A stretch of DNA of 64,000 nucleotides from Cupriavidus respiraculi (lineage in GTDB: Bacteria; Pseudomonadota; Gammaproteobacteria; Burkholderiales; Burkholderiaceae), in the NCBI RefSeq assembly GCF_914271545.1, contig NZ_CAJZAH010000001.1, forward strand, positions 1,364,001 to 1,428,000, read 5' to 3'. This document shows positions 1-16,032 of the stretch, in pieces. Both the position numbers and the translations under genes were made by a program. The notes beneath the pieces were generated by a model. The model saw nothing but the letters and a program-made list of their open reading frames with translations. It ran no database searches and had not been told where the DNA came from. Positions within the stretch are counted from its first letter, which is position 1. The number at the start of each line of letters is the position of its first letter.

Positions 1-841
1 TATGCGGCGACTTGCCGCCGCATTCGAGCCATACCCGCTTCAGGTTCGACTGGCCCGCATACTCCATGAAGCGCTTGCCGGTGGCCGTCGATCCGGTGAA
101 GGCGATGCAGTCCACGTCGGGATGCAGACCCAGCGCCTGTCCGGCCTGTGCGCCCAGGCCCGGCACCACGTTCAGCACGCCTGCTGGAATGCCAGCCTGC
201 GCGGCCAGCTCGGCCAGGCGCAGCGCGGTCAGCGGCGATTGCTCGGCCGGCTTGAGCACCACGCTGTTGCCGGCGGCCAGCGCGGGCGCCACCTTCCAGC
301 TGGCCATCAGGAGCGGATAATTCCACGGCACCACGGCCGCCACCACGCCCAGCGGCTCGCGCGTAATGGTGGCCAGCACGTTGGCATCGGTGGGCGCGAT
401 CTCGTCGTAGATCTTGTCGATCGCCTCCGCGTACCACGCATAGGTGCGGGCACATTCCGGAATGTCGTACAGCAGCGTATCGGCGATGGGCTTGCCCATG
501 TCCAGCGTTTCCAGCAGCGCCAGTTCCTCGCGATGCGTCTCGATCAGGGCCGCCAGCCGCAGCAGCACGGCCTTGCGCTCGCGCCGCGGCATCGCGGCCC
601 AGACGCCCTGCTCGAACGCCCTGCGCGCCGCCGCGACGGCGCGGTCCACATCGGCCTGGCCGCACGCGGCGACCCGGGCCAGCAGCGCGCCAGTCGCCGG
701 GTAGATGCTGTCGAAGGTGGCGCCGTCGGCGGCATCGCACCATGCGCCGTCGATATAGGCCTGGCTGCGCAGGCCGCCGCTGCCGCCGGCCAGCGCCTGG
801 GCGCGCTCGCGCCAGTAGGACAGATCGTGAAGTTCGCTCAT
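1..841 (-). CDS. NAD(P)-dependent aldehyde dehydrogenase, C-terminus beyond the window
   Basis: N-terminal 280 codons of an aldehyde dehydrogenase; the rest lies left of base 1. Seen directly: the Rossmann segment PWNYPLLMASWKVAPALA, the cofactor motif FTGSTATGK, and LECGGKS, whose Glu (about residue 273) is the general base. The catalytic Cys is off the window. The N-terminus (MSELHDLSYW...) resembles the PuuC/KauB class, which oxidises gamma-aminobutyraldehyde and its acyl or guanidino derivatives; that substrate class is inferred from family and context. The ATG at 841 overlaps the stop of the upstream DMT gene in an ATGA, so translation is probably coupled. It is the last visible gene of the long GABA-type run and would supply the aldehyde-to-acid step. 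Confidence 0.9.
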   Translation of the reverse strand, partial: MSELHDLSYWRERAQALAGGSGGLRSQAYIDGAWCDAADGATFDSIYPATGALLARVAACGQADVDRAVAAARRAFEQGVWAAMPRRERKAVLLRLAALIETHREELALLETLDMGKPIADTLLYDIPECARTYAWYAEAIDKIYDEIAPTDANVLATITREPLGVVAAVVPWNYPLLMASWKVAPALAAGNSVVLKPAEQSPLTALRLAELAAQAGIPAGVLNVVPGLGAQAGQALGLHPDVDCIAFTGSTATGKRFMEYAGQSNLKRVWLECGGKSPH

Positions 842-1767
842 GGGGATTGCCTCGAATCAAGGGAGGAAGGGGCGCGTGCGAGGCGCAGTCCGCGCGCCGG
901 CAGGGTCAGCGACAGCCCGGCGGCGACGATCAGCGCGATGCCGGCCAGCGCCGGTCCATCCGGCCAGCGGCCGAACCACCATGCGCTGTAGACCAGCGCC
1001 AGCAGCAGATGGAAATAGTTCAGCGGCGCCAGCGTGGAGGCCGGCGCACGTTGCAACGCCAGGATCAAGAGCACCTGGGCCAGCGCGCTCATGAAGCCCA
1101 TCGCCAGGATCGCCATCCAGTCGACGAGACCGGGCCACACCGCGGGGAGGAAGAACGGCGCGGGCAGCGCGGTGGCGATCATGCAGATCACGGCCGCGAA
1201 GCCGTACTGCACCTGCGCATCGACCTTGCCCGCCATGCGCCGCGTCAGCAGCTGCAGCAGCGCATAGCCCAGCATGGCGGCCACCATCAGCGCCGTGCCG
1301 AGCCACGACAGCTGCCCGCCCGGGCGCACGATCAGCAGCATGCCGGCGAAGCCGGTGGCCACCGCGAGCCACTGGCGCGCGCCGACGCGCTCGGCCAGCA
1401 GCCAGGGCGACAGCGCGACCACCACCAGCGGCGCCATGAAGTAGATCGCCGTGGCCTCGGCCAGCGGCATCCACAGCAGCGCGGTCATGAAGCAGGTGCC
1501 CATGACGGCCAGCATCAGTCCGCGCAGCGTGAGCAGGCCGCGGTGCGGCGTGCGCCAGAAGCGCAGCCGCCCCGAGCCGGCGAGCATCGCCAGGGCCACG
1601 GCCATCGTGGCCGCGTAGCGTACGACGTTGAGAAAGGGCGCGGGATAGCGGCCGACCAGATGCTTGGCGGTGGCGTCCACGGTCGCAAACAGCATCACCG
1701 CGCAGAGGAAGAGCGCGCCGCCGCGCCACCAGCCCTCGCCGCCGTCGCGGCCCGCGGCGGCGCTCAC
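838..1767 (-). CDS. DMT superfamily (EamA) transporter
   Basis: Inner-membrane protein of 309 residues with about ten hydrophobic segments in two EamA repeats, the usual length for drug/metabolite transporters. I start it at a GTG (1767) that shares GTGA with the stop of the amidohydrolase gene; the reading frame stays open much further upstream, but that part reads as arginine-rich noise. Its stop in turn overlaps the aldehyde dehydrogenase start (ATGA). Placement inside a catabolic run suggests it exports or balances an intermediate, amino acid or amine of the pathway. No substrate can be read from the sequence. Confidence 0.88.
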   Translation of the reverse strand: MSAAAGRDGGEGWWRGGALFLCAVMLFATVDATAKHLVGRYPAPFLNVVRYAATMAVALAMLAGSGRLRFWRTPHRGLLTLRGLMLAVMGTCFMTALLWMPLAEATAIYFMAPLVVVALSPWLLAERVGARQWLAVATGFAGMLLIVRPGGQLSWLGTALMVAAMLGYALLQLLTRRMAGKVDAQVQYGFAAVICMIATALPAPFFLPAVWPGLVDWMAILAMGFMSALAQVLLILALQRAPASTLAPLNYFHLLLALVYSAWWFGRWPDGPALAGIALIVAAGLSLTLPARGLRLARAPSSLDSRQSP

Positions 1768-3008
1768 GTGCCCGCCCGCGCCACCATGGCGCCGAGCAGC
1801 ACGTTGGCCCCGGCCTCCAGATGCTCCGGCCTGGCGTCTTCGATCTCGTTGTGGCTGATGCCGTCCTTGCACGGCACGAAGATCATCGCCGTGGGCGCGA
1901 CGCTGGCCATATAGACCGCGTCGTGGCCCGCGCCGGTCACGATGTCCTGATGGCTGTAGCCGCGGGCCGCGGCCTCGCTGCGCACATGGCCGATCAGTTC
2001 GGGCGCGAACGGCGTGGGCGGGAAATACTGCACGTCGCGCACGTCCACTTCCAGCGGCGTGCCGGTGGTGGTGCCGTTCGCCAGCGCCGCGCACGCGGCG
2101 CGAAAGCGCGCGTCCATCTCGGCCAGGCGCCCAGCGTCCTCATGGCGCAGGTCGACGGTGAAGGTCACCGCGCCGGGAATCACGTTGCGCGAGGCGGGAT
2201 GGGCGTTGATCACGCCGACCGTGCCGCGGCCGTGGGGCGCGAAGTCGTTGGCGATGCGCACGACCTCCTGCATCAGGAAAGTGGCGCCATACAGCGCGTC
2301 GCGGCGCAGCGGCATCGGCGTGGGCCCGGCATGCGCCTCCATGCCGGTCACGGTCACGTCGTACCAGCGCAGGCCCAGCGAGCCGGTCACCACGCCGATC
2401 ACGTTGTCGGCCCCTTCGAGAATTGGCCCTTGCTCGATATGCGCCTCGAAATAGGCGCCGACCTGGCGGCCACCCACTTCCGCCGCCCCGGCATAGCCGA
2501 TCGCCTGCAATTCGTCGGCCACGCGCTTGCCGTCGCGGTCGGTGGCGTCCAGCGCGGTCTGCAAGGGAAAGATGCCGGCGAACACGCCGGAGCCCATCAT
2601 CACCGGCACGAAGCGCGTGCCTTCCTCGTTGGTCCAGATCGCCACCTCCAGCGGCGCCTCGGTGCGCACGCCGTGGTCGTTCAGCGTGCGTATCACTTCC
2701 AGCCCCGCCAGCACGCCGTAGCAGCCATCGAACTTGCCGCCCGTGGGCTGCGTGTCGATATGGCTGCCAGTCATTACCGGCGGCAGCGCGTCGTTGCGCC
2801 CCGCGCGGCGGCCGAAGATGTTGCCGACGCGGTCCACGGTCACCGTCAGACCCGCCTCGCGCATCCAGCCGGTGACCAGATCGCGCCCCTGGCCGTCCAG
2901 CGCGGTCAGCGCCAGGCGCGCATTGCCCCCCTTGGGCGTCGCGCCGATGCGCGCCAGGTCCATCAGGGATTGCCACAACCGCTGGCCGTCGATCTTCAAT
3001 GTCGTCAT
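1764..3008 (-). CDS. M20 Zn-dependent amidohydrolase (N-carbamoyl-amino-acid hydrolase / allantoate amidohydrolase family)
   Basis: A 414-residue cytosolic metallohydrolase of the HyuC/AllC branch of M20, which removes carbamoyl or ureido groups from amino acids or allantoate. Visible metal ligands are His83 in GSHIDTQ, Asp94 in GKFDGCYG, the Glu pair in TNEEGTRF (128-129), His190 in EAHIEQGP, and the late GAGHDA His. The ATG at 3008 is chosen for its GAGGAGAT Shine-Dalgarno; longer in-frame extensions enter the 3' end of the upstream gene. It follows the HDAC-type gene and is coupled by GTGA overlap to the DMT gene. Inference: in this operon it could release GABA from 4-ureidobutyrate (N-carbamoyl-GABA). 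Allantoate is less likely because no other purine-catabolism gene is present. Confidence 0.9.
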   Translation of the reverse strand: MTTLKIDGQRLWQSLMDLARIGATPKGGNARLALTALDGQGRDLVTGWMREAGLTVTVDRVGNIFGRRAGRNDALPPVMTGSHIDTQPTGGKFDGCYGVLAGLEVIRTLNDHGVRTEAPLEVAIWTNEEGTRFVPVMMGSGVFAGIFPLQTALDATDRDGKRVADELQAIGYAGAAEVGGRQVGAYFEAHIEQGPILEGADNVIGVVTGSLGLRWYDVTVTGMEAHAGPTPMPLRRDALYGATFLMQEVVRIANDFAPHGRGTVGVINAHPASRNVIPGAVTFTVDLRHEDAGRLAEMDARFRAACAALANGTTTGTPLEVDVRDVQYFPPTPFAPELIGHVRSEAAARGYSHQDIVTGAGHDAVYMASVAPTAMIFVPCKDGISHNEIEDARPEHLEAGANVLLGAMVARAGT

Positions 3009-3030
3009 GTCGATCTCCTCGAAACGTTCG

Positions 3031-4104
3031 CTACGCCATCGCGGGCGCGAAGCCGGACAGGAAGGCATCGAGCGCCGCACCGATGGCGTCGACCTCGTAG
3101 CCGCCCTCCTGCACCACCACGGTTGGCACGCCCAGCGCATGGATACGCTCGCCGATGCCGCGATAGCCGTCCATGCCCACGGCCAGTACGCTGATGGGAT
3201 CGTGCTCGTAGGTGTCGAAGCCCAGCGACAGCACCAGCGCCTGCGGGCGGTAGTCGCGCAGCGCGTTGAGCGCGCTGTCCAGCGCCGCGAGAAAGCCGGT
3301 GTCGCCGGTGCCGTGCGGCAGCGGGAAGTTCAGGTTGTAGCCATAGCCCGCGCCGTAGCCGCGCTCGTTGGCATAGCCGGTATAGAAGGGGTAGTACGCG
3401 GCGGGATCGGCATGCAGCGAGATCGTCATCACGTCCGAGCGCTGGTAAAAGATCTGCTGTGTGCCGTCGCCGTGATGGGCGTCCACGTCCAGCACCGCCA
3501 CCTTCTCGAAGCGCTTGAGCAGAGCCTGCGCGGCGATGGCGGCGTTGTTGACGTAGCAGAAGCCGGCGGCGCGGTCGCTGTGGGCGTGATGGCCGGACGG
3601 GCGGCACAGCGCATAGGCCATGCCGATGCCCTGCTGCTGCCCGCAGACATGGTCGGCGGCCGCCACCGCGCTGTGCGCCGAACGCAGGATCGATTGCCAG
3701 CTGTGCGGGCCGAGCGGGCAGCTCAGGTCGCCCAGGTAGTAGCCGGCCTGCGCGATCACCGAGTCGGTGGGGCAGTCGGGGCGGCGGGTCTGGTCAACCT
3801 TGCCGTTGTGGTACGGCGATAGGTTGGGCAGCACCTCGATGCCCGGCTCGAATCCGGGCCGCGCCAGCGCCTGCCACTTGTCGTAGGCACGCGCGAGAAA
3901 GTCGAGATAGGCCGGGCTGTGCACGGCCTCCAGCGGCGCGCGGCCATAGTCGGGCGCGGCGGCAAGATCGATGCCGCGCGCGGCGAGCGCGGCCTGCAGC
4001 GCGGCGGCGCGTGCGGGCACGTCGGTGGGCTCGCACAGCCGGCCCGCGCGCATGAACTGGCGCGGCTGGTGGAGCAACTGGTCATCCGAGAAGAAGGCAC
4101 GCAT
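3031..4104 (-). CDS. Acetylpolyamine amidohydrolase-type histone deacetylase family enzyme
   Basis: A 357-residue zinc deacetylase of the arginase/HDAC fold. The length and the N-terminal MRAFFSDDQ match bacterial acetylpolyamine amidohydrolases. Active-site elements are all present: the His pair in SGHHAHSD (172-173), Zn ligands in DVDAHHGDG (Asp208, His210) and GFDTYEHDP (Asp297), and the transition-state Tyr in QEGGYE (336). The family hydrolyses N-acetylputrescine, N-acetylcadaverine and related amides to the free amine. It sits 42 bases after the TPP-enzyme gene and 22 bases before the M20 gene. In context it may deacetylate an acyl-polyamine or N-acyl-GABA; the true substrate is open. 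Confidence 0.9.
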   Translation of the reverse strand: MRAFFSDDQLLHQPRQFMRAGRLCEPTDVPARAAALQAALAARGIDLAAAPDYGRAPLEAVHSPAYLDFLARAYDKWQALARPGFEPGIEVLPNLSPYHNGKVDQTRRPDCPTDSVIAQAGYYLGDLSCPLGPHSWQSILRSAHSAVAAADHVCGQQQGIGMAYALCRPSGHHAHSDRAAGFCYVNNAAIAAQALLKRFEKVAVLDVDAHHGDGTQQIFYQRSDVMTISLHADPAAYYPFYTGYANERGYGAGYGYNLNFPLPHGTGDTGFLAALDSALNALRDYRPQALVLSLGFDTYEHDPISVLAVGMDGYRGIGERIHALGVPTVVVQEGGYEVDAIGAALDAFLSGFAPAMA

Positions 4105-4146
4105 ATCGTAAGGGCGTAGGGGGTGGGGCGTGAGGGGCGCGGTCGG

Positions 4147-5898
4147 TCAGGGCGCCGCCTGGGATTGGGATTGGGATTGGCGCGCCAGCGCGGCCTCGCG
4201 GATCTGCGTCAGCGTCATGCCGGGCGCGATGCCGTCAGGGTCGTAGCGAAGCTCGATCAGCGCCGGCAGCCGCTGCGTGCTGGCGAACGCCAGCGCCCGC
4301 GCGAAGGCCGGGCCGAACTCGGCATCGCTCGCGACCACTTCGCCATGGCCGCGGTAGGCCCGCACCAGCTCGCTGAAATCGGGGTTGTCGAAGCCCAGAG
4401 CGATGGTGCGCCCGGGAAATTCGCGCTCCTGGTGGGCGCGGATGGTGCCCCACATGCCGTTGTTGAACACCAGCACGACGATCCCGAGCCGGTACTGCAT
4501 CGCCACGCCCAGTTCCTGCAGATTCATCTGGAAGCAGCCGTCGCCGGCATAGCAGACCACGGTGCGCTCCGGGTGTTCGAGCTTGGCGGAGATCGCGGCC
4601 GGCAGGCCGTAGCCCATCGAGCCCACCGTGGGGGCGAGGCTCGTGCCGATACCCTTGAAGCGGTAGTAGGCATGCGGAAACAGCGCGTAGTTGCCGGCGC
4701 CGACGGTGATGCAGGCATCCTCGGGCACATGGTCGCGCACATGGCAGGCGGCCGCGTTCAGGTTCAGCGGGCCCGGCGCGGGGGCGGGCTCCTGGCGCGA
4801 AAGATAGTCGTCACGCGCGGCGCGGGTCTGCGCCGACCACACGGGCTCGCCCGCCGGCCGCAGCCCATCGACCGCCTGCGCGAACGACACCACGTCCGCC
4901 GCCACCGGCAGCGCGGCCTGGAACACGCGCCCCAGCTCGTTGGCATCCGGATAGACATGTACCAGCCGCTGGCGCGGCAGCGGGCTTTCGACCAGCGTAT
5001 AGCCTTCGGTGGTGGCCTCCCCCATGCGGGTGCCCACCGCGATCAGCAGATCGGCGTCGCGGATGCGCCCGCGCAGCGCCTCGGTCATGCCCCAGCCCAC
5101 ATGGCCGGCGAAATGGGGATGATGGTTGTCGAAGCACTCCAGGCGGCGCCAGGCCACGCCCACGGGCAGCGCAAAGCGCTCGGCGAAGCCCTCGATCTGG
5201 CGCATGGCCTGCGGCGTCCAGCCGGAGCCGCCGACGAGCAGAAAGGGCCGCCTGGCGTCTGCCAGCAGCGTGGACAGCGCGCTCATCGCCTGCGGCGTGG
5301 GCGCCGAATGCGAGCGTTGGTAGCGCGGCAGGTCGGCCACCGCGGCCTTGCCCCACAGGGTGTCCTCGGGCAGCGCCAGCACCACCGGACCCGGCCGCCC
5401 GCTGGTCGCCACGGCAAACGCGCGCGCGATGAACTCGGGGATGCGGTCGGTGCGGTCGATCTGCGCCACCCACTTCGCCATCTGACCGAACATGCGGCGG
5501 TAGTCGATTTCCTGGAAGGCCTCGCGCTCGTAGAAATCGTTGCCCACCTGGCCGACGAACAGGATCATCGGCGTGGAGTCCTGGTAGGCGGTATGCACGG
5601 CGATGCTGGCATTGGTGGCGCCCGGGCCGCGCGTCACGAAGCAGATGCCCGGCTCGCCGGTCAGCTTGCCGTAGGCCTCGGCCATATAACCCGCGCCGCT
5701 TTCCTGCCGGCACACCACCGGCTGGATCGCGTCCTGATGGTCGTACAGCGCGTCGATGCACGGCAGGTAGCTTTCGCCAGGCACGAGAAACACACGCTTG
5801 ACGCCGTGGATGCGCAATTGTTGTACGAGGATCTGCCCGCCGTTGCGCTCGGCCGTCTCCGGGCCCCGCCCCACGGTGCTCGATGCTGCTTCTGTCAT
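4147..5898 (-). CDS. Thiamine-pyrophosphate-dependent enzyme, acetolactate-synthase-like (2-oxo-acid decarboxylase candidate)
   Basis: A 583-residue TPP enzyme with the three-domain layout of acetolactate synthase. Glu66 in VCRQESGAGYMAEAYG is the cofactor-activating glutamate. The C-terminal domain carries the diphosphate/Mg motif GDG...NNG (AGDGCFQMN to VFNNGMWG). No regulatory small subunit or other branched-chain biosynthesis gene is nearby, so a catabolic role is more likely. The same fold includes AruI, the 2-ketoarginine decarboxylase that makes 4-guanidinobutyraldehyde; the neighbouring aldehyde dehydrogenase and gabT/gabD make such a decarboxylation plausible (inference). The start at 5898 has a GGAGGAAAC ribosome site and overlaps the cupin stop (ATGA). 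The C-terminus ends in a Ser-Gln repeat encoded by a hexanucleotide repeat. Confidence 0.85.
   Translation of the reverse strand: MTEAASSTVGRGPETAERNGGQILVQQLRIHGVKRVFLVPGESYLPCIDALYDHQDAIQPVVCRQESGAGYMAEAYGKLTGEPGICFVTRGPGATNASIAVHTAYQDSTPMILFVGQVGNDFYEREAFQEIDYRRMFGQMAKWVAQIDRTDRIPEFIARAFAVATSGRPGPVVLALPEDTLWGKAAVADLPRYQRSHSAPTPQAMSALSTLLADARRPFLLVGGSGWTPQAMRQIEGFAERFALPVGVAWRRLECFDNHHPHFAGHVGWGMTEALRGRIRDADLLIAVGTRMGEATTEGYTLVESPLPRQRLVHVYPDANELGRVFQAALPVAADVVSFAQAVDGLRPAGEPVWSAQTRAARDDYLSRQEPAPAPGPLNLNAAACHVRDHVPEDACITVGAGNYALFPHAYYRFKGIGTSLAPTVGSMGYGLPAAISAKLEHPERTVVCYAGDGCFQMNLQELGVAMQYRLGIVVLVFNNGMWGTIRAHQEREFPGRTIALGFDNPDFSELVRAYRGHGEVVASDAEFGPAFARALAFASTQRLPALIELRYDPDGIAPGMTLTQIREAALARQSQSQSQAAP
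4161..4180. repeat. Hexanucleotide tandem repeat GGGATT x3
   Basis: Three in-phase copies of GGGATT lie at the 3' end of the TPP-enzyme gene and encode a QSQSQ tail just before the stop. Because the unit is six bases, copy-number change would lengthen or shorten the tail by dipeptides without a frameshift. Confidence 0.85.
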
Positions 5899-6236: not shown

Positions 6237-6283
6237 GCTGGGCACTCGCTATGGACGGCGCTGAGCCGGTGAAGGTGAAGCCG

Positions 6284-6304
6284 CGCCCCCGTCCCGCGGG
6301 GGCG
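6284..6304 (-). other. GC-only intercistronic hairpin between gabD and the cupin gene
   Basis: The arms CGCCCCCG (6284-6291) and CGGGGGCG (6297-6304) are perfectly complementary over 8 bp with a 5-base loop. There is no U-run on the minus-strand side, so it is not a classic terminator. It may be a processing or stability element that sets different levels for gabTD and the downstream genes (inference). Confidence 0.6.
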
Positions 6305-6313
6305 GGCGTGAGG

Positions 6314-7771
6314 TCAGCGGTCGACGCCGCCCATGCACAGGTACTTGATCTCGAGGTAGTCATCGATGCCGTACTTCGAGCCCTCGCGGCCCAGTCCCGA
6401 TTGCTTGACGCCGCCGAACGGCGCCACCTCGTTCGAGATCAGGCCGGTATTGATGCCCACCATGCCGTACTCCAGCGCCTCGGCGACGCGCCAGATGCGG
6501 CCGATATCGCGGCTGTAGAAGTACGACGCCAGACCGAACTCGGTGTCGTTGGCCATGCCGACCACCTCCTCGTCGGTATGGAAGCGGAACAGCGGCGCCA
6601 GCGGTCCGAAGGTCTCCTCCTTCGCCACGCGCATGGCCGGCGTCACGTCGGCCAGCACGGTCGGTTCGAAGAAGGTGCCGCCCAGCGCGTGGCGCTTGCC
6701 GCCGGCCAGCACGCGGGCGCCCTTGCCCAGCGCGTCGTCGATATGCAGTTCCACCTTGCGCACCGCATCCTCGTTGATCAGCGGGCCCTGCAGCACGTCG
6801 GGTTCCACGCCGCTGCCCACCCTCAGCTTCGCTACCGCGGCGACCAGCTTCTGCGCGAACGCGTCGTAGACCTTGTCGTGCACGTAGAGCCGGTTGGCGC
6901 AGACGCACGTCTGGCCCGCGTTGCGGTACTTGGAGGCGATGGCGCCCTCCACCGCCGCGTCGAGATCGGCGTCGTCGAACACGATGAACGGCGCGTTGCC
7001 GCCGAGCTCCAGCGACAGCTTCTTGATGGTGTCGGCGCACTGGCGCATCAGGATGCGGCCGACCTCGGTGGATCCGGTGAACGTCAGCTTGCGCACCACC
7101 GGATTGCCGGTCAGCTCGCCGCCGATGGCCTTGGCGTCGCCCGTCACCACGCTGAGCACGCCCGCGGGCAGGCCCGCGCGCTCGGCCAGCACCGCCAGCG
7201 CCAGCGCCGACAGCGGCGTGTCCTCCGCCGGCTTGAGCACCATCGCGCAGCCAGCGGCCAGCGCCGGGCCCACCTTGCGCGTGATCATCGCCAGCGGGAA
7301 GTTCCACGGCGTGATGGCGGCGCAGACTCCCACCGGCTCCTTGACGACCACCAGCCGCTTGTCGTTCGCGGGCGTGGCCAGCACATCGCCGCAGACGCGC
7401 TTGCCCTCTTCGGCGAACCATTCGAGGAAGGACGCCGCGTACACGACTTCGCCCTTGGCCTCGGCCAGCGGCTTGCCCTGCTCGGTAGTCATCAGCAGCG
7501 CGAGATCGTCGGCGTGCGCGAGCATCAGCTCGTGCCATTTGCGCAGCACGGCGCTGCGCTCGCGCGCGGTACGGCGGCGCCACTCGGTCTGCGCAGCACG
7601 CGCGGCCTCGATGGCGCGGCGCGTTTCCGCCGCGCCCATCTTCGGCACATTGCCGATGGGCGCGCCGCTGGCGGGATCGGTGACGGGGAAGGTCTCGCCG
7701 CTGTCGGCGTCGGCCCAGGCGCCGCCGATAAACGCCTGCGCGCGCAGCAGGCCGGTGTCGTTCAGTTGCAT
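6314..7771 (-). CDS. gabD: Succinate-semialdehyde dehydrogenase
   Basis: A 485-residue aldehyde dehydrogenase with the GabD signature. It oxidises succinate semialdehyde to succinate with NAD(P), the last step of GABA breakdown. The general base is Glu255 (LELGGNAPF) and the nucleophile Cys289 in NAGQTCVCANR. The second cysteine two residues later (Cys291) gives the C-x-C pair that forms a redox-sensitive disulfide in some SSADHs. It lies 27 bases downstream of gabT and shares its strand, so the two are very probably one transcript. Length and start (ATG 7771) fit the family. Confidence 0.95.
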   Translation of the reverse strand: MQLNDTGLLRAQAFIGGAWADADSGETFPVTDPASGAPIGNVPKMGAAETRRAIEAARAAQTEWRRRTARERSAVLRKWHELMLAHADDLALLMTTEQGKPLAEAKGEVVYAASFLEWFAEEGKRVCGDVLATPANDKRLVVVKEPVGVCAAITPWNFPLAMITRKVGPALAAGCAMVLKPAEDTPLSALALAVLAERAGLPAGVLSVVTGDAKAIGGELTGNPVVRKLTFTGSTEVGRILMRQCADTIKKLSLELGGNAPFIVFDDADLDAAVEGAIASKYRNAGQTCVCANRLYVHDKVYDAFAQKLVAAVAKLRVGSGVEPDVLQGPLINEDAVRKVELHIDDALGKGARVLAGGKRHALGGTFFEPTVLADVTPAMRVAKEETFGPLAPLFRFHTDEEVVGMANDTEFGLASYFYSRDIGRIWRVAEALEYGMVGINTGLISNEVAPFGGVKQSGLGREGSKYGIDDYLEIKYLCMGGVDR

Positions 7772-7798
7772 CGTGTACTCCGGTTGAGGTCGCGGGGA

Positions 7799-9061
7799 TC
7801 AGCGGACCAGCACGTCCTCGAGGATGTCCAGCCCTTCGTCCATCACCGCGTCGGGAATGGTCAGCGGGAACAGGAAGCGGATGACGTTGCCGTAGACGCC
7901 GCAGGACAGCAGCAGCAGTCCCTTCTCCAGCGCGCGGTTCTGCACCTCGCGGGTGAACTCCGGGTCAGGGCTGCCGTCGGCCTTCTGGAATTCCACCGCG
8001 ACCATGGCGCCCAGGCCGCGCACTTCCGCCATTTGCGGCACGCGCGAACGCAGGCCGTGCAGACGGTCCATCAGCCGCTCCCCGAGCGCCGCGCCGCGCG
8101 CGACCAGTTTCTCTTCCTCCAGCACGTCCAGCACCGCCAGCGCGGAAGCCACCGCCAGCGGATTGCCGGCATAGGTGCCACCGAGCCCGCCGGGCGCCGG
8201 CGCGTCCATGATCTCGGCGCGCCCGCACACCGCCGACAGCGGCATGCCGCCGGCCAGGCTCTTGGCCATCGTGGTGAGGTCGGGCGCCACGCCGTAGTGC
8301 TCCATCGCGAACAGCTTGCCGGTGCGGCCGAAGCCGGTCTGCACCTCGTCGGCGATCAGCAGGATGCCGTGCTCGTCGCAGAGGGCGCGCAGCGCCTTGA
8401 CGAAGGCGGCGGGCGCGACATTGAAGCCGCCCTCGCCCTGCACCGGCTCGAAGATGATGGCGGCCACGCGCTTGGGGTCGACGTCTGCCTTGAACAGGTG
8501 TTGCAGCGCCTTGAGCGAGTCCTCGACCGAGATGCCATGCAGCTCGCCGGGATACGGCGCGTGATAGACCTCCCCGGGGAAGGGACCGAAGCCGACCTTG
8601 TACGGCACCACCTTGCCGGTCAGCGCCATGCCCATCATGGTGCGGCCGTGGAAGGCGCCCGAGAAGGCGATCACGCCGGGCCGGCCGGTGGCGGCGCGGG
8701 CGATCTTGATGGCGTTCTCGACCGCCTCTGCGCCGGTGGTGAAGAACGCGGTCTTCTTGGCCGACTGGCCGGGCGCGCGCTGGTTGATCTTCTCGGCCAG
8801 CTCGATATAGCTGGCATAGGGGACGATCTGGTAGGCCGTATGGGTAAAGCGCTCCAGTTGCCGCTGCATCGCCGCCACCAGACGCGGATGGCGGTGACCC
8901 GTGTTGAGCACCGCGATGCCGGCCGCGAAGTCGATATAGCGGCGGCCCTCCACGTCCCAGATTTCCGAATTCTCGGCCCGCTCGGCGTAGAAATTGCACA
9001 TCACGCCCACGCCACGGGGCGTGGCGGCATCCTTGCGGCGGACCAGTTCGGCGTTCTTCAT
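7799..9061 (-). CDS. gabT: 4-aminobutyrate--2-oxoglutarate aminotransferase
   Basis: A 420-residue class III PLP aminotransferase. It moves the GABA amino group to 2-oxoglutarate, giving succinate semialdehyde for GabD. The N-terminus (PRGVG...AERAENSEIWDVEGR) aligns with enterobacterial GabT. Asp238 in IADEVQTGFGRTG should contact the pyridine nitrogen, and Lys267 in TMAKSLAGGMP is the Schiff-base lysine. An ATG four codons upstream (9073) exists, but ATG 9061 has GGAG at proper spacing and matches family length. It follows the ABC transporter ATPase gene by 90 bases. Confidence 0.95.
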   Translation of the reverse strand: MKNAELVRRKDAATPRGVGVMCNFYAERAENSEIWDVEGRRYIDFAAGIAVLNTGHRHPRLVAAMQRQLERFTHTAYQIVPYASYIELAEKINQRAPGQSAKKTAFFTTGAEAVENAIKIARAATGRPGVIAFSGAFHGRTMMGMALTGKVVPYKVGFGPFPGEVYHAPYPGELHGISVEDSLKALQHLFKADVDPKRVAAIIFEPVQGEGGFNVAPAAFVKALRALCDEHGILLIADEVQTGFGRTGKLFAMEHYGVAPDLTTMAKSLAGGMPLSAVCGRAEIMDAPAPGGLGGTYAGNPLAVASALAVLDVLEEEKLVARGAALGERLMDRLHGLRSRVPQMAEVRGLGAMVAVEFQKADGSPDPEFTREVQNRALEKGLLLLSCGVYGNVIRFLFPLTIPDAVMDEGLDILEDVLVR

Positions 9062-9151
9062 GGTTTGCTCCATATGGCTTGGTTGGGCGCGCGGACGGTG
9101 TCAGGGTCGGTCGATGTCCGCGCGAATTCGGGTTGAGGTACGGGTGCGGGT

Positions 9152-10816
<1,665 letters not shown>

Positions 10817-10827
10817 GGCTGGCTTCC

Positions 10828-11667
10828 TCATTCGCCGCGGCGGCGCAACTGCGGATTCATGGCGTCGTTCAGGCCTTCGCCGATCAGGTTGATGGACAGC
10901 ACCGTCAGCAGGATCGCCACGCCGGGCCACACGCTCATCCACCAAGCTTCGCGGATCATGGTGCGCGCCGCGCCGATCATGAAGCCCCAGCTCATCATGT
11001 TGCGGTCGCCCAGCCCCAGGAAGGACAGCGCCGATTCGGTCAGGATCGCGGTCGCGACCATGAACGAGGCCGAGACGATGATGGGCGACATGGCATTGGG
11101 CAGGATCTGCGTGGCGATGATGCGCAGCGGCTTCTGGCCGATGACCACCGCGGCCTGAACGAACTCGCGCTGCTTCAGGCTCAGGAATTCGCTGCGCACC
11201 AGCCGCGCGACCGGCGGCCACGACACCACCGAGATGGCCGCGACGATGGAATAGATCGACGGATTGAAGATGGCCACGATCACCACGGCCATCGCCAGCT
11301 GCGGGATGGTCTGGAAGAACTCGGTGAAGCGCATGAGCGCGTCGTCGATGCGTCCGCCGCAATAGCCGGCCACCGAGCCGATCAGGATGCCGAACAGCAG
11401 CGCGACGCCGGTGGAGATCACCCCGACCAGCAGCGAAACGCGCGCGCCGTACAGCATGCCGGCGGTGATGTCCCGGCCCAGCATGTCGGTACCGAACGGA
11501 TACGCCGGGTCGGCGAACGGATGCACCAGGGGGTCCGCCACCATCAGCCACGGCGAGTCCTCGTACAGCACCGGCGCGAAGATCGCGAAGGCGATCACGG
11601 CCAGCAGCACCAGCAGGCCGGCGACCGCGCCGTAGTTGCGGCAATAGCGTTGCAGGAAGGCTTTCAT
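10828..11667 (-). CDS. Dipeptide-type ABC transporter permease (DppC-like)
   Basis: A 279-residue inner-membrane permease with an N-terminal membrane anchor, a periplasmic loop (YPFGTDMLGRD, typical of DppC/OppC), and the binding-protein-dependent transport domain. The EAA loop that docks on the ATPase is visible around EFVQAAVVIGQKPLRIIATQILPN. Start ATG 11667 overlaps the stop of the DppB-like gene (ATGA). It pairs with that permease to form the transmembrane channel. Confidence 0.92.
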   Translation of the reverse strand: MKAFLQRYCRNYGAVAGLLVLLAVIAFAIFAPVLYEDSPWLMVADPLVHPFADPAYPFGTDMLGRDITAGMLYGARVSLLVGVISTGVALLFGILIGSVAGYCGGRIDDALMRFTEFFQTIPQLAMAVVIVAIFNPSIYSIVAAISVVSWPPVARLVRSEFLSLKQREFVQAAVVIGQKPLRIIATQILPNAMSPIIVSASFMVATAILTESALSFLGLGDRNMMSWGFMIGAARTMIREAWWMSVWPGVAILLTVLSINLIGEGLNDAMNPQLRRRGE

Positions 11668-12668
11668 GCCGTGGCTCCCTTGCCGCCGACCGAGATGCGC
11701 GGATCGATGAAGCGATACAGCACGTCGGTCAGCAGGTTGAAGAAGACCACCAGTGCGGAGGTCACGAAGAAGATGCCCAGCAGCAACTGGTAGTCGCGCT
11801 GCAGCAGCGCGTCGAACATCAGCCGCCCGATGCCCGGCCAGGAGAACACCGTCTCGGTCAGCACCGCGCCGCCGGCCATCTGGCCAAGCTGGATGCCGGC
11901 GAAGGTGATCACCGGCAGCAGCGCGTTGCGCAGCACGTGCACGCGGATCACGCGGTTGGCCGGCACGCCCTTCGCGCGCGCCGTCTTGACGTAGTCCATG
12001 CCCATCACTTCCAGCATCGATGCGCGGGTCAGCCGCACGTACACCGCCATGAAGAAGCAGCCGAGCGAGACCGTGGGCAGGATCATGTGCAGCGCCACGT
12101 CCTTGACGCGCGCCATGCCGGTGTACCCCGCGCCGATGGTTTCCATGCCGAAGGCCGGGAGCCAGCCCAGCACCACCGAGAACAGGATGATGGCCATCAG
12201 CGACAGCCAGAACAGCGGCGTGGCATACAGCAGCAGCGCGCCGGACATCACCGCGCTGTCGATCCAGCGGCGGCGGTTCTCGTAGCGGGTGCGCGCGGCG
12301 ATGACGCCCAGCAGCACGCCCAGCACGATGGAAAACACGAAGGCGCCGCTCATCAGCAGGAACGTCGCGGGCAGCCGGTCCAGGATCAGGTCGAGCACCG
12401 GCAGGTGATTGCGGTAGGAGTAGCCCAGGTCCAGCTGTGCCACGCCCTTCAGGTAGATGGCGAGCTGGGTCATCAGCGGCTTGTCCAGGCCGAACTGCTC
12501 GCGCAGCTGGCCGACGAAGGCGGCGTCGCCGGCGCCCGCCTCGCCCGCCATCACCGTGGCGGGGTCGCCGGGCGCGAGCCGGATCAGGAAGAAGTTGATG
12601 ATGACCACGCCGAGCACGACCACGATGGCCTTGCCCAGACGGGATATCAGGAAGGAAAGAAAGTTCAC
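11664..12668 (-). CDS. Dipeptide-type ABC transporter permease (DppB-like)
   Basis: A 334-residue permease of the DppB/GsiC class: first transmembrane helix in FLISRLGKAIVVVLGVV, the conserved FFLIRLAPGDP, then five further helices, and an EAA loop near MDYVKTARAKGVP. I start it at GTG 12668, which has GGAG six bases upstream. The frame is open further upstream, but that stretch runs through the palindromic repeat at 12701-12816 and would give a false leader. Stop overlaps DppC start. Confidence 0.9.
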   Translation of the reverse strand: MNFLSFLISRLGKAIVVVLGVVIINFFLIRLAPGDPATVMAGEAGAGDAAFVGQLREQFGLDKPLMTQLAIYLKGVAQLDLGYSYRNHLPVLDLILDRLPATFLLMSGAFVFSIVLGVLLGVIAARTRYENRRRWIDSAVMSGALLLYATPLFWLSLMAIILFSVVLGWLPAFGMETIGAGYTGMARVKDVALHMILPTVSLGCFFMAVYVRLTRASMLEVMGMDYVKTARAKGVPANRVIRVHVLRNALLPVITFAGIQLGQMAGGAVLTETVFSWPGIGRLMFDALLQRDYQLLLGIFFVTSALVVFFNLLTDVLYRFIDPRISVGGKGATA

Positions 12669-12700
12669 GGCGAGCTCCACGCGGGCGATCTGCGGGTGTG

Positions 12701-12816
12701 TTCTCCCCTCTCCCGCGCGCGGGAGAGGGGCGGGGGTGAGGGTGACCGCTCGCGATACTGCGGACGCTTGAACCACCCCTCACCCTGACCCTCTCCCCGT
12801 GAGGGGAGAGGGGACC
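12701..12816. repeat. BIME-like pair of palindromic repeats (copy 1)
   Basis: Two facing copies of a short palindrome built on CTCTCCC...GGGAGAGG: one at 12701-12745 (arms TCTCCCCTCTCCCGCG / CGCGGGAGAGGGG) and one at 12775-12816 (CCCTCTCCCC / GGGGAGAGGG). They lie between the ABC binding-protein and permease genes. Similar pairs occur at 51326-51465 and 57626-57750, with a single copy at 34831-34867. The form resembles REP/BIME elements; in an operon such hairpins can protect the upstream message from decay (known for REP, inferred here). Confidence 0.75.
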
Positions 12817-12900
12817 GGTATTGGTGAATCGGTCGCGATCGCAGCATTGCCACGCCCGGTGACCGCCCCCCAACGAAGTACACCGGTCCCTGGGACGACC

Positions 12901-14505
12901 TCAGTTCTTCTCGATCGAGACGTTGTCGAACGACTCGTTCAGGCCGATGGCCGTCGTCACCAGGTTCTTCACGTTCTTGCGGTAGAGCGTGGGGAACTCC
13001 AGCTCGAACAGGTTGCCGTTGGCGACCTCGGTGACGAGGATCTTCTGCACCTCGCTATAGAGCTTCTGGCGCTCGGCTGCGTCCATCGTCGCGCCGGCCT
13101 TGGCCCACAGCTCGTCCGCCTTCGGGTTGTTGTAGCCCTGCACGTTGGCGAACGGCGTGCCCTTGACGATGTTGCGGGCCACGTACAGCCGCTCCACGCC
13201 CAGCGCGGGGTCGCCGTACTGGTAGGTGTAGGTGGTCGTCAGGTCGAAGTCCCAGTTGCTGACGCGGGCCGCCCACGTGCCGGCGTCGGCCGATTCGATG
13301 CTGACCTTGAAGCCGATCTGCTCGAGCATCTGCTTGGTGTACTCGTCCAGGCGATCCCAGTTGGCGCCATACGAGGTGGCGAGAATCTTGACCGGGTACT
13401 GGCCGACATTGACGCCCGACTCCTTGATCAGGTCGCGCGCCTTCTTCAGGCTGAACTCCATGTTCGGCATGTTCTTGTCGAAGAACAGCGTGGTCGACGC
13501 GAAGGGGCTGACCGCCGGCTTGCCCATGCCGAAGAAGATGTTGTTGACGATCATGTTGCGGTTCAGCGCATGCATGACCGCCTGGCGGACCTTGACGTTG
13601 TCGAACGGCGGCTTGCGCTGGTTCATCAGCATGCTGGTCATCGGCGAGAACAGCTCCCAGCCCTTGGTGGTGTACTCCACGTTGGGCAGCGCGCGCAGGC
13701 GCTTGACGTCGACGTTGTCGACATCGCCGCCGCGCAGCACCTGCACGTCGCCCTTCTCGAACGCCACCGCGCGCGAGGCGGAGTCGGGAATCACGTAGAA
13801 GACCAGCTCATCGAGGTACGGCTTGCCCTTCTTCCAGTAGTTCGGATTCTTGGCCAGCTTGATATAGGCGCCCTTCTTCCATTCCTTGAACATGAACGGG
13901 CCGGTGCCCACCGGCTTCTGGTTCGCCGGATTGTTGCGATAGTCGGTGCCCTCGTACAGGTGCTTGGGCATCATCGGCATGGTGCCGGTCTCGAACATCG
14001 AGATGAACGGCGGGAACGGCTCCTTGAGCTTGATTTCCACCGTGCTGTCGTTGACCGCGCGGATCGAGGCCATGTACTTGTTGAGCACGGCACGCGTGCG
14101 CACGTGCACTTCGCGCAGCAGCTTGTCGATGGAGAACACCACGTCGGCGGAGGTGAACGGCTTGCCGTCGTGCCACTTCACGCCGCTTTGCAGCTCGAAC
14201 GTGTAGGTCAGGCCGTCGGGCGAGATCTTCCACGACTTGGCCAGTTCGGGCTGCGGCTTGAGGTCCGGCGAGTACGTCAGCAGGCCTTGGTAGATCTTGC
14301 CGGCCACGTACTGGGTGGGCGCCTGGGAGTTCAGGGCGCTGACCAGAATCGGCGGCTCGGGCTGGACGATGCCGGACAACGTGCCGCCCACGGTCTGGGC
14401 GGCGGCGTTGCCCGAAGGCAGGGCCAGCGGCAGCAGGGACAAACCCGCCGCCGCGATCGCTAGCGAAGCCAGGCGCTGTTGAAGGCGCGTCGTAACTCGT
14501 TTCAT
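12901..14505 (-). CDS. Periplasmic substrate-binding protein of a peptide-type ABC transporter (SBP family 5)
   Basis: A 534-residue secreted binding protein (DppA/OppA class). The signal peptide is clear: MKRVTTRLQQR followed by a hydrophobic core and a cleavage site near NAAAQTVG. The family core motifs are present (PELAKSWKISPDGLTYTF, KWHDGKPFTSADVVFS). The start at 14505 has AAGGAAAC upstream. It is separated from dppBC-like genes by about 230 bases holding the palindromic repeat pair, which suggests higher expression of the binding protein than of the channel. The ligand is unknown; operon context favours an amine, N-acyl amino acid or small peptide. Confidence 0.92.
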   Translation of the reverse strand: MKRVTTRLQQRLASLAIAAAGLSLLPLALPSGNAAAQTVGGTLSGIVQPEPPILVSALNSQAPTQYVAGKIYQGLLTYSPDLKPQPELAKSWKISPDGLTYTFELQSGVKWHDGKPFTSADVVFSIDKLLREVHVRTRAVLNKYMASIRAVNDSTVEIKLKEPFPPFISMFETGTMPMMPKHLYEGTDYRNNPANQKPVGTGPFMFKEWKKGAYIKLAKNPNYWKKGKPYLDELVFYVIPDSASRAVAFEKGDVQVLRGGDVDNVDVKRLRALPNVEYTTKGWELFSPMTSMLMNQRKPPFDNVKVRQAVMHALNRNMIVNNIFFGMGKPAVSPFASTTLFFDKNMPNMEFSLKKARDLIKESGVNVGQYPVKILATSYGANWDRLDEYTKQMLEQIGFKVSIESADAGTWAARVSNWDFDLTTTYTYQYGDPALGVERLYVARNIVKGTPFANVQGYNNPKADELWAKAGATMDAAERQKLYSEVQKILVTEVANGNLFELEFPTLYRKNVKNLVTTAIGLNESFDNVSIEKN

Positions 14506-14591
14506 CGGACCGTTTCCTTGTCGTTGTGAACAGCTGGAACAGAAGTGCACTGCTTCTACTTCGATCGTGAGGCGGCGGACGCCGTCCGGCG

Positions 14592-15932
14592 TCACGCGTC
14601 GCCGAGCGGCTCCACGCCGCACCAGTCGTGCATGAACTGCGCAAGCGTGGTGGCGACGCGCACCATGCTGTCGAGCGACACGGACTCGTCGATGCCGTGG
14701 ATGTTGCGGGCCACCGGGCCGTAGCAGGTGACCGGCGTATCGAGCATCAGGCGGAAATGGCGGGCGTCGGTGGTGGCGGTGGTGGCTTCGCGCGCCACCG
14801 GCACGCCGTGCACCTTGCGGTGGGCGTCGGCCAGCGTCTGCATGCTGGGCACGTCGAGATCGAACTCGCAGCCCGGCGCATGAAAGCCTTCGTAGCGGAT
14901 GGTCAGTTCGAGATTGCTGGCAAGGCGGTCCACGGTGGCGCGGATGCGCGACTCCACGAGCGCCTTGGTCTCGTCGATATCCATGTGCGGATAGAAGCCG
15001 ATGCGCACACCCAGCGTGCAGGTGCACGGCACCGACGAATTCCATTCGCCGCCGTGGATCTGGCCCAGGTTGAAATTGATCGGATGCGCGTGGTCGCGGT
15101 ACACCGGCGGACGGTTCTCGGGCAGGTTCCACTCGGCCTCGAGCTCGCGCAGGTCCGCCATCACGGCCACGCCGGCCTCGACCGGATTGACGCCGGTGGT
15201 CATGTAGGCCGCATGGGCGGGCCGCCCGGTCAGTTCGATGAACATCCAGTAGACGCCGACCTGCGCGCTCATCAGGCTCTCGCCCAGCGGCTCGGGAATG
15301 ATCACCGTATCGAACGAGGCCAGCTTGCCCGCGCCCACCGCGCTGCGCAGCGCGGCCACGGTGGCCAGCGCCCCGTTGCCGGTGTTCTCTTCCTCCAGCA
15401 CGGCGTTGAAGCCCACCGCGCCGGCGGGCTGCACGCCCAGCGCGCGCAGCGCCTTGAACGCCGCCAGCGCGCAGACGATGCCGGCCTTCATGTCGCCGGC
15501 GCCGCGGCCGTAGAGCCAGCCGTCCTCCACCACAGGGGTGAACGGCGGGTTGCGCCACATCGATTCGGGGCCGGTGGGCACCACGTCGAGATGGCCGTTG
15601 AACAGCACCGAACGCCCGCCTTTGGTCGGCGGACGATGCGTGGCCAGCAGGTTGTAGCGGCCGCCGTCCGGACAGCACGGCGGCGAGAACAGCGGCAGGT
15701 CGCGGATGGCATCGGCGCGCAGATGGATGCGTTCGGACTCCAGGCCCAGGTCGCGCAATGCCGCCTCGATGAAATCGGCGGCGGGCTGCTCCTGGCCCGA
15801 GGGGCTCGCTGCCGCGACAAAGCCGGACAGCGTCTCGGTCATGTACGGCAACAGCGCACGCACGGCGTCGGCGATGTCGGTGGTGGTGAGCTGGCGTTGC
15901 GAATGCGCGGATGGACTTGCCGAGACTTGCAT
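14592..15932 (-). CDS. ArgE/DapE-family M20 deacylase
   Basis: A 446-residue metallopeptidase-fold deacylase. Metal and catalytic motifs: NGHLDVVP, GRGAGDMKAG, the Glu pair in LEEENTGN, and IPEPLGES; the C-terminal metal His lies in HGIDES. Members hydrolyse N-acyl (acetyl, formyl, succinyl) amino acids. The start at ATG 15932 has GGGAG upstream. It is the first gene of the long minus-strand run, divergent from the MocR regulator, and precedes the ABC importer, so it probably deacylates the imported compound (inference). Confidence 0.9.
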   Translation of the reverse strand: MQVSASPSAHSQRQLTTTDIADAVRALLPYMTETLSGFVAAASPSGQEQPAADFIEAALRDLGLESERIHLRADAIRDLPLFSPPCCPDGGRYNLLATHRPPTKGGRSVLFNGHLDVVPTGPESMWRNPPFTPVVEDGWLYGRGAGDMKAGIVCALAAFKALRALGVQPAGAVGFNAVLEEENTGNGALATVAALRSAVGAGKLASFDTVIIPEPLGESLMSAQVGVYWMFIELTGRPAHAAYMTTGVNPVEAGVAVMADLRELEAEWNLPENRPPVYRDHAHPINFNLGQIHGGEWNSSVPCTCTLGVRIGFYPHMDIDETKALVESRIRATVDRLASNLELTIRYEGFHAPGCEFDLDVPSMQTLADAHRKVHGVPVAREATTATTDARHFRLMLDTPVTCYGPVARNIHGIDESVSLDSMVRVATTLAQFMHDWCGVEPLGDA

Positions 15933-16032
15933 ATGCGCTCCCTGGACGCCGTGGCGACCTTGTTCCCTATGGACTCGCCGGAGCGAAAGCACTTGCACCG
16001 GCACGCGATGGGTGGGAAATTAACGCACAGTT

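What the first reader, a model, noticed from the sequence alone, without database searches (positions are those of the whole stretch)
1..16004. Thirteen-gene run that may import and degrade N-acylated or N-carbamoylated C4 amines to GABA and succinate
Seen: one co-oriented run with repeated ATGA/GTGA coupling that joins a peptide-type ABC importer, gabT, gabD, an aldehyde dehydrogenase, and three chemically different amide hydrolases (ArgE/DapE deacylase, HDAC-fold acetylpolyamine amidohydrolase, M20 carbamoylase). Known: each family removes acyl, acetyl or carbamoyl groups, and GabT/GabD finish GABA breakdown. Inference: the run is a broad pathway for masked polyamines or arginine/citrulline derivatives, an arrangement I do not recognise as described.
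Basis: partly seen in the sequence, partly recalled or inferred. Interest (0 to 1): 0.75.

Follow-up and report, generated by a model that had tools for sequence, protein, structure and literature searches.

The report
Masked-amine to GABA catabolic operon
A conserved, apparently co-regulated set of bacterial genes in Cupriavidus that most likely imports chemically capped small amines, uncaps them to GABA and burns GABA to succinate; it is a credible but largely foreseeable variant of a GABA-use regulon already predicted in print, with one unexplained enzyme that suggests an alternative entry route.

Summary
The run is real: 13 minus-strand genes, the last leaving the window at position 1, with four 4-base overlaps. 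The host is a Cupriavidus close to C. gilardii. A three-box operator between mocR and argE/sbp recurs in 18 related loci. In the genus, importer, GabT, cupin, HDAC-fold hydrolase and carbamoylase nearly always travel together; gabD, TPP enzyme and aldehyde dehydrogenase vary. In four other Cupriavidus genomes a diverged HDAC (43-47%) sits beside the carbamoylase or GabT, tying these enzymes together independently. A characterised carbamoylase relative hydrolyses N-carbamoyl-GABA. So 'capped C4 amines to GABA to succinate' is partly supported; the substrate is unknown. The arrangement is not wholly undescribed: Suvorova and Rodionov (2016) predicted betaproteobacterial GabR regulons with argE, dppABCD, gabT and gabD. 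No SpuC-like aminotransferase or PuuA was found in the genome, and the TPP enzyme and an omega-aminotransferase never share a locus (0 of 80), hinting that the TPP enzyme makes the C4 aldehyde from a C5 keto acid. New variant of a known kind.

The parts
14592..15932 (-). M20 ArgE/DapE-family deacylase, first gene of the run
   Evidence: NF005306 437 bits (cut-off 376), PF01546; nearest solved chain 3pfo 'putative acetylornithine deacetylase'
12901..14505 (-). periplasmic solute-binding protein, family 5 (dipeptide/nickel/opine type)
   Evidence: PF00496 305 bits; none of the listed NCBIfam models reaches its cut-off
11664..12668 (-). DppB-type permease
   Evidence: PF00528, PF19300; 58-99% identical in the relatives matched
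10828..11667 (-). DppC-type permease, overlaps dppB by 4 bases
   Evidence: PF00528, PF12911
9152..10816 (-). fused DppD-DppF ATPase
   Evidence: two ABC_tran stretches and oligo_HPY
7799..9073 (-). GabT, GABA transaminase, the only one found in the genome
   Evidence: TIGR00700 638 bits (cut-off 507), NF005272 732 (725); next class III matches 33-36%
6314..7771 (-). GabD, NADP succinate-semialdehyde dehydrogenase
   Evidence: NF008415 846 bits (cut-off 828); three paralogs at 58-69% in the genome
5895..6245 (-). small cupin protein
   Evidence: PF07883 35 bits; 23 of 24 genus loci
4147..5898 (-). TPP enzyme of subfamily PRK08199, function unknown
   Evidence: NF006052 869 bits (cut-off 539); AruI model NF005712 only 246 (cut-off 500)
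3031..4104 (-). HDAC-fold amidohydrolase, acetylpolyamine amidohydrolase kin
   Evidence: PF00850 248 bits; best five solved chains are all named acetylpolyamine amido-/aminohydrolases; Zn and catalytic motifs present
1764..3008 (-). M20 carbamoylase (hydantoinase/carbamoylase family)
   Evidence: NF006769 666 bits (cut-off 452), TIGR01879 413 (204); 405 bits to N-carbamoyl-beta-alanine amidohydrolase 8c46
838..1767 (-). EamA-family transporter, overlaps both neighbours by 4 bases
   Evidence: PF00892 78 bits
1..841 (-). PuuC/KauB-type aldehyde dehydrogenase; continues 674 bases outside the window (to G000:C1:1363327)
   Evidence: best solved chains 4lih (named gamma-glutamyl-gamma-aminobutyraldehyde dehydrogenase) 664 and, fourth, 6b4r KauB 614 bits; below the PuuC cut-off (687 of 850)
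16031..16076 (.). three-box operator between argE and mocR
   Evidence: aligned with 18 related loci; core found in 17 of the 17 genus pieces that span the gap; only exact hit of the core in the genome
16079..17674 (+). MocR-type regulator, divergent
   Evidence: GntR + Aminotran_1_2; NCBIfam PdxR model 432 bits (cut-off 320), GabR model 324 (600); 20 of 20 genus pieces
17754..19193 (+). FAD-linked 2-hydroxyacid dehydrogenase, D-2-hydroxyglutarate-dehydrogenase-like, 79 bases behind mocR
   Evidence: PF01565, PF02913; 3pm9 343, mitochondrial D2HGDH 6lpn 283 bits; 18 of 20 genus pieces

Best explanation
A MocR-controlled catabolic operon for small N-capped (acylated and carbamoylated) C4/C5 amines. 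A dipeptide-type ABC importer brings in the capped compound. The ArgE-type deacylase uncaps an alpha-amino end. The TPP enzyme decarboxylates a C5 2-oxo acid to a C4 amino- or capped-amino-aldehyde, the PuuC/KauB-type ALDH oxidises it, and the HDAC-fold enzyme and the carbamoylase take off acetyl and carbamoyl caps, yielding GABA; GabT and GabD then give succinate. Shown here: gene content, catalytic motifs, conserved operator, conserved co-occurrence, separate HDAC-carb and HDAC-GabT pairings. Inferred: all substrates, the order of steps, regulation by this MocR protein, the role of the TPP enzyme, cupin and EamA. 'Capped amine to GABA to succinate' I hold at about 0.6; the step order as written lower.
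For: Co-occurrence in 24 genus loci and swap of carb and gabT behind a diverged HDAC. Cluster GabT is the only one found in the genome. HDAC nearest to acetylpolyamine amidohydrolases; PA0321 and PA1409 of P. aeruginosa, enzymes of that kind, deacetylate acetylputrescine (PMC4784309, passages including part of the abstract). A carbamoylase relative with a tested activity (8c46) hydrolyses N-carbamoyl-gamma-aminobutyric acid (PMC10952681 section 10) and its motif stretches recur here. ALDH nearest to PuuC/KauB types. Conserved operator and divergent MocR. Published GabR regulon prediction. No SpuC-like aminotransferase, agmatine deiminase or second glutamine-synthetase-type protein that could be PuuA was found, so the usual putrescine routes are not evident.
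Against: No substrate has been tested. gabT/gabD are near the HDAC in only 21 and 11 of 80 order-level loci, and L167 lacks gabT, gabD, tpp and carb. The TPP enzyme is in 15 of 24 genus loci and its wider family (45-58% relatives) shows no fixed context. The two acidic residues that I recall as polyamine-binding in the M. ramosa enzyme are I and S here. The TPP/aminotransferase exclusion needs only about three changes on the HDAC tree. An AptA-type omega-aminotransferase elsewhere in the genome could act on putrescine, and PuuD-family hits exist, partial but over the cut-off.
Confidence: 0.5

Rival explanations
1. Acetylputrescine scavenging: HDAC deacetylates N-acetylputrescine (carb acts on N-carbamoyl relatives), an aminotransferase elsewhere makes 4-aminobutanal, ALDH and GabT/GabD finish. 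The TPP enzyme is a passenger.
For: HDAC kin are acetylpolyamine enzymes; ALDH PuuC/KauB-like; in Bordetella, Comamonadaceae and some others an omega-aminotransferase lies in the locus (32 of 80).
Against: No SpuC-like aminotransferase among the five class III matches of the genome, one glutamine-synthetase-type protein only, no agmatine deiminase; AptA remains possible. A dipeptide-type importer is, from general knowledge, unusual for polyamines. TPP, ArgE and carb are left without a clear role.
Confidence: 0.25
2. Peptide or opine-like substrate: the importer and the two M20 enzymes degrade a GABA- or beta-alanine-containing peptide or N-acyl amino acid; HDAC removes a non-acetyl acyl group.
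For: Importer is of the dipeptide/opine type; M20 enzymes are broad N-acyl hydrolases (general knowledge); published GabR regulons with dppABCD.
Against: Does not explain the aldehyde dehydrogenase or TPP enzyme; SBP reaches no specific NCBIfam cut-off.
Confidence: 0.15
3. Ectoine-type catabolism (MocR + deacetylase + GabT/GabD-like enzymes).
For: Same enzyme classes and a MocR regulator (pathway as described in PMC5320631, passages).
Against: No ectoine hydrolase in the 13 genes; ectoine MocR model EhuR 163 bits against cut-off 480; GabT and GabD meet GABA-specific cut-offs.
Confidence: 0.03

Closest known systems
Betaproteobacterial GabR regulon predicted by Suvorova and Rodionov 2016 (PMC5320631; passages and section 13)
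   Same: MocR regulator; gabT, gabD, dipeptide-type ABC importer dppABCD, argE named as members in Ralstonia/Bordetella
   Different: Section 13 and the passages seen name no HDAC-fold enzyme, carbamoylase, TPP enzyme, cupin or EamA for this set (PuuC-type ALDH only as a general pathway step); the supplementary tables were out of reach (look-ups capped at 0)
Acetylpolyamine amidohydrolases PA0321/PA1409 of P. aeruginosa and PsApaH (PMC4784309 passages; PMC11532494 passages and section 9)
   Same: HDAC fold; named acetylpolyamine enzymes are the nearest solved chains; Zn/catalytic motifs kept
   Different: No biochemical data for this protein; polyamine-contact residues differ from the M. ramosa enzyme (recalled)
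N-carbamoyl-beta-alanine amidohydrolase RrCbAA (PMC10952681, passages and section 10)
   Same: Same M20 family, motif stretches shared; that enzyme hydrolyses N-carbamoyl-GABA
   Different: Here it sits with HDAC and GabT; no pyrimidine-breakdown gene is among the 13
Arginine transaminase pathway AruHI-KauB-GbuA-GabTD (PMC7268258 passages for the Sinorhizobium network; gene names partly recalled)
   Same: TPP decarboxylase, KauB-type ALDH and GabTD logic
   Different: AruI model not met, no guanidinobutyrase in the run; amidohydrolases stand where the ureohydrolase would

Membership tests
Betaproteobacterial GabR regulon | MocR-type regulator gene beside the targets | tested here: met
   20 of 20 genus pieces
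Betaproteobacterial GabR regulon | operator of two direct and one inverted box upstream of the targets | tested here: inconclusive
   three conserved boxes in window plus 18 loci; not compared with the published motif, box orientation not tested
Betaproteobacterial GabR regulon | targets gabT, gabD, dppABCD, argE | tested here: met
   text
Betaproteobacterial GabR regulon | regulator orthologous to their GabR group | tested here: inconclusive
   NCBIfam GabR 324 bits of 600, PdxR 432 of 320; their group's sequences were not at hand
Acetylpolyamine amidohydrolase | HDAC fold with Zn/catalytic residues | tested here: met
Acetylpolyamine amidohydrolase | sequence closer to acetylpolyamine enzymes than to other HDACs | tested here: met
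   top five solved chains
Acetylpolyamine amidohydrolase | acidic polyamine-contact residues (M. ramosa E106, E117, recalled) | tested here: inconclusive
   I and S here; 9gkz lacks them too
Acetylpolyamine amidohydrolase | deacetylates acetylputrescine | not testable with these tools
   -
Hydantoinase/carbamoylase family (M20) | family model and motifs | tested here: met
   TIGR01879 413 of 204; NF006769 666 of 452; motifs
Allantoate deiminase AllC | AllC model | tested here: not met
   242 bits of 598
Arginine transaminase pathway | AruI 5-guanidino-2-oxopentanoate decarboxylase | tested here: not met
   246 bits of 500
Arginine transaminase pathway | guanidinobutyrase in the gene set | tested here: not met
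   none among the 13 genes; the rest of the genome was not searched for it
Arginine transaminase pathway | GabT and GabD | tested here: met
Ectoine catabolism (doe/eut) | ectoine hydrolase in the gene set | tested here: not met
   none among the 13 genes
Ectoine catabolism (doe/eut) | EnuR/EhuR-type MocR | tested here: not met
   EhuR 163 bits of 480

The most novel reading that the evidence does not exclude
A keto-acid decarboxylation route for capped ornithine-type amino acids (citrulline, N5-acylornithine): the PRK08199 TPP enzyme turns 2-oxo-5-ureido- or 2-oxo-5-acylamino-pentanoate into the C4 aldehyde, the ALDH makes 4-ureido- or 4-acylaminobutyrate, and the carbamoylase and HDAC-fold enzyme release GABA, so that amidohydrolases replace the guanidinobutyrase of the arginine transaminase pathway. 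It would give a function to this TPP subfamily and a GABA-forming role to a bacterial HDAC-fold enzyme.
Probability: 0.2. Interest if true: 0.62.

Novelty: new variant of a known kind. Interest (0 to 1): 0.4.

Why it matters
It gives a testable substrate class to three proteins that are here known only by family (a bacterial HDAC-fold hydrolase, an M20 carbamoylase, a TPP enzyme of a subfamily named without a function), would extend a computationally predicted GABA regulon by up to six gene families (unless its supplementary tables already list them), and offers a natural swap (HDAC followed by carb or by GabT) that can be used to order the pathway.

Tried and rejected
Ectoine catabolism was considered because MocR, deacetylase and GabT/GabD-like enzymes fit; rejected on the missing hydrolase and the regulator score. 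Allantoin catabolism (carb is named 'allantoate amidohydrolase' in NCBIfam; the TPP enzyme recalls Gcl) was considered; the AllC score is far below its cut-off and solved carbamoylases score far higher than solved allantoate amidohydrolases. The 68% paralog of the carbamoylase was read in case one of the two was the pyrimidine enzyme: it lies in a run with Liv-type ABC genes (by eye) and an M81/MlrC peptidase; no pyrimidine gene was recognised, but only the peptidase was scanned.

The PRK08199 family outside this cluster was surveyed for a shared context (370 class genomes, 19 with a match over the cut-off, own included; 250 order genomes, 88 with a match at E <= 1e-150; 39 neighbourhoods called with my own simple ORF caller, several of them badly or not at all): neighbours were diverse, so no function followed. 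One exception, G585 (L137), has TRAP transporter, HpcH aldolase, tpp, carb and aldh in one run.

TPP versus omega-aminotransferase: 0 loci with both, 19 TPP only, 32 aminotransferase only, 29 neither, of 80. Fisher p = 2e-5, but the tree shows about three changes for each label, so this p overstates the evidence; the sister pair L024 (TPP, in a separate opposite-strand unit) / L038 (aminotransferase) is the clearest single swap.

A one-mismatch operator hit at G000:C6:73471 was followed: it lies between genes that look like nagZ and efp (by eye); taken as chance; the backwards control pattern gave 6 hits against 5.

Literature: searches (10 of 10); two searches returned no paper, one unrelated paper; in the listings of these ten I saw no paper joining an HDAC-fold enzyme, a carbamoylase and gabTD. 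Two P. aeruginosa papers (PMC8844440, PMC6403454) were opened in passages for PA1417/PA1409 and proved to be false text matches. My recollection that PA1409 and guanidinobutyrase lie near a TPP decarboxylase in P. aeruginosa could not be tested and is not used as evidence. Structure prediction and fold search were not used.
Full report
What is there. The window lies at bases 1364001-1428000 of contig 1 of a 5.59-Mb genome. The HDAC-fold protein is 92-94% identical to Cupriavidus gilardii and C. cauae proteins, so the host is a Cupriavidus. Thirteen minus-strand genes run from 15932 down to position 1, the last ending 674 bases outside. In order: M20 ArgE/DapE deacylase, family-5 solute-binding protein, DppB, DppC, fused DppD-DppF, GabT, GabD, a small cupin, a TPP enzyme, an HDAC-fold amidohydrolase, an M20 carbamoylase, an EamA transporter and an aldehyde dehydrogenase. 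Four of 12 junctions overlap by four bases; the longest gap, 232 bases between sbp and dppB, holds G+C-rich hairpins. The catalytic motif strings looked for are present. Upstream and divergent stand a MocR-type regulator and, 79 bases behind it, a D-2-hydroxyglutarate-dehydrogenase-like FAD enzyme.

Regulation. Between mocR and argE there are three boxes (16031-16076). The alignment of the window with the 18 loci that hold mocR (Cupriavidus, Bordetella, Achromobacter, Parapusillimonas and two unplaced Burkholderiales) shows them conserved although the next gene is argE in some and sbp in others. In 20 further upstream pieces from genus members, mocR is present in 20, the FAD gene in 18 and argE in 17; the core of the operator is found in 17, and the three pieces without it end inside mocR. 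In the own genome the core has one exact hit, this one; with up to two mismatches there are 5 hits against 6 for the reversed control pattern, and the best of the loose ones was judged chance. That this MocR protein binds these boxes is inferred.

Conservation in the genus. Of 60 Cupriavidus genomes searched, 25 including the own one hold the HDAC ortholog at 83% or more, one of them in two pieces. Twenty-four of these loci (all but the own) were read with about 9.5 kb on each side where the contig allows: dppB, dppC, dppDF 23, cupin 23, sbp 22, gabT 22, carb 21, gabD 16, tpp 15, aldh 14, EamA 14 of 24; three loci reach a contig end (L167, L173, L180) and argE/mocR mostly lie beyond the flank. 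One locus, L167, has importer, cupin, HDAC and EamA but no gabT, gabD, tpp or carb. A further 63% ortholog (L181) has the same surroundings and is not in these counts. The gene set is thus accessory in the genus but tightly knit.

Wider conservation. In the 80 best of 185 order-level loci, anchored on the HDAC and therefore not a random sample, some cut short by contig ends, sbp is present in 72, EamA in 69, cupin in 50, carb in 40, aldh in 26, gabT in 21, tpp in 19, gabD in 11 (identity thresholds set in the script; dppB/C 73 and dppDF 76). So the nucleus is importer, HDAC, EamA and often carb and cupin; gabT and especially gabD are lineage-specific additions. This is evidence against reading the whole run as one indivisible pathway.

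Separate pairings. One search lists 14 diverged HDACs at 45-51%; nine were read, five (G662, G633, G670, G660, G635) were not. Five of the nine lie in a sister cluster (below). Four (L187-L190; 43-47%) lie in a LysR | MFS transporter - HDAC unit followed by the same kind of carbamoylase (80-81% identical) in two genomes, by GabT (82%) in one and by GabT (61%) and an ALDH (43%) in one. Because the HDAC and transporter differ from those of the window, this is separate evidence that HDAC, carbamoylase and GabT serve one pathway.

What the enzymes probably do. The HDAC-fold protein's five nearest solved chains are all named acetylpolyamine amido- or aminohydrolases; PA0321 and PA1409 deacetylate acetylputrescine (PMC4784309, passages including part of the abstract) and a 2024 survey places bacterial polyamine deacetylases in one cluster (PMC11532494, section 9). 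Residues I recall as polyamine-binding in the M. ramosa enzyme are not kept, but 9gkz lacks them too. The carbamoylase is closest to structural-genomics chains (5thw, 5i4m); [quoted passage not shown] The former is active on N-carbamoyl-gamma-aminobutyric acid (PMC10952681, section 10), which yields GABA. The aldehyde dehydrogenase is PuuC/KauB-like, though below the PuuC cut-off. GabT and GabD meet their equivalog cut-offs, and this is the only GabT found in the genome, the four next class III matches at E <= 1e-20 being AptA, ArgD, HemL and BioA.

The TPP enzyme. It belongs to subfamily PRK08199, clearly above its cut-off and clearly below that of the 2-ketoarginine decarboxylase AruI. In the genome no SpuC-like aminotransferase was found, only one glutamine-synthetase-type protein, presumably GlnA, hence no PuuA, and no agmatine deiminase; PuuD-family hits are partial, 21-51 bits, but over the cut-off. 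Putrescine could still pass through AptA. In the 80 loci the TPP enzyme and an omega-aminotransferase never co-occur, as if they were alternative sources of the C4 aldehyde; the tree allows only about three independent changes each, so this is suggestive only. Outside the cluster the family has no fixed neighbours, apart from one run with TRAP transporter, aldolase, carb and aldh.

Comparison with what is known. Suvorova and Rodionov predicted that betaproteobacterial GabR controls gabT and gabD, in Bordetella gabT2 and dppABCD, in Ralstonia the ABC transporters and, in two species, argE (PMC5320631, section 13 read). That covers the first half of this run. That section and the passages seen do not mention the HDAC, carbamoylase, TPP enzyme or cupin for it; the rest of the text was not read and supplements were out of reach. 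In the listings of ten library searches I saw no paper that joins the HDAC-fold enzyme, carbamoylase and gabTD. Sinorhizobium work shows that an AruI-like enzyme can prefer another C5 keto acid (PMC7268258, passages), a precedent for the novel case.

Verdict. The reading 'capped amines to GABA and succinate' is the best available and gains support from conservation, but substrates are untested, gabTD are not invariant and part of the arrangement is already in print. I rate it a new variant of a known kind, interest 0.4; the keto-acid route through the TPP enzyme is the part worth a bench test.

Noticed in passing
L054, L077, L182-L186: Sister cluster in Comamonadaceae and some Cupriavidus: importer, GhrA-like 2-hydroxyacid dehydrogenase, omega-aminotransferase, EamA, GntR, one or two HDACs, APH-type kinase and a class III PLP enzyme of the PRK06148 kind (kinase in 20 of 80 loci, class II aldolase in 22). 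A kinase plus phospho-lyase pair could turn 2-hydroxyputrescine (recalled as a betaproteobacterial polyamine) into 4-aminobutanal; idea only.
   Followed up: partly
L137 6275-14547: TRAP transporter, HpcH/HpaI aldolase, TPP enzyme (73%), carbamoylase (77%) and ALDH (74%) in one run without importer or HDAC in the piece.
   Followed up: partly
window 12669-12900: G+C-rich hairpins of repeat-element look between sbp and dppB; single-strand folding z-score -2.4, 8 of 200 shuffles as good.
   Followed up: no
G000:C2:1455987-1457198 (L223): 68% paralog of the carbamoylase beside an M81/MlrC-type peptidase and what look like Liv-type ABC genes.
   Followed up: partly
window 17754-19193: D-2-hydroxyglutarate-dehydrogenase-like gene stays behind mocR in 18 of 20 Cupriavidus pieces; its link to GABA breakdown is unexplained.
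   Followed up: partly
G000:C1:207095-208744 (L117): Second PRK08199 TPP enzyme, about 51% identical, with no cluster gene beside it.
   Followed up: partly
G000:C2:928981-929835 (L134): A second, distant HDAC-fold protein (36%) in the genome, beside genes unrelated to the cluster apart from one ABC ATPase.
   Followed up: no
L044 12105-18016: Behind the Achromobacter version lie a LacI regulator, a DctQ-type TRAP subunit and an IlvD/Edd dehydratase, probably a separate unit.
   Followed up: no
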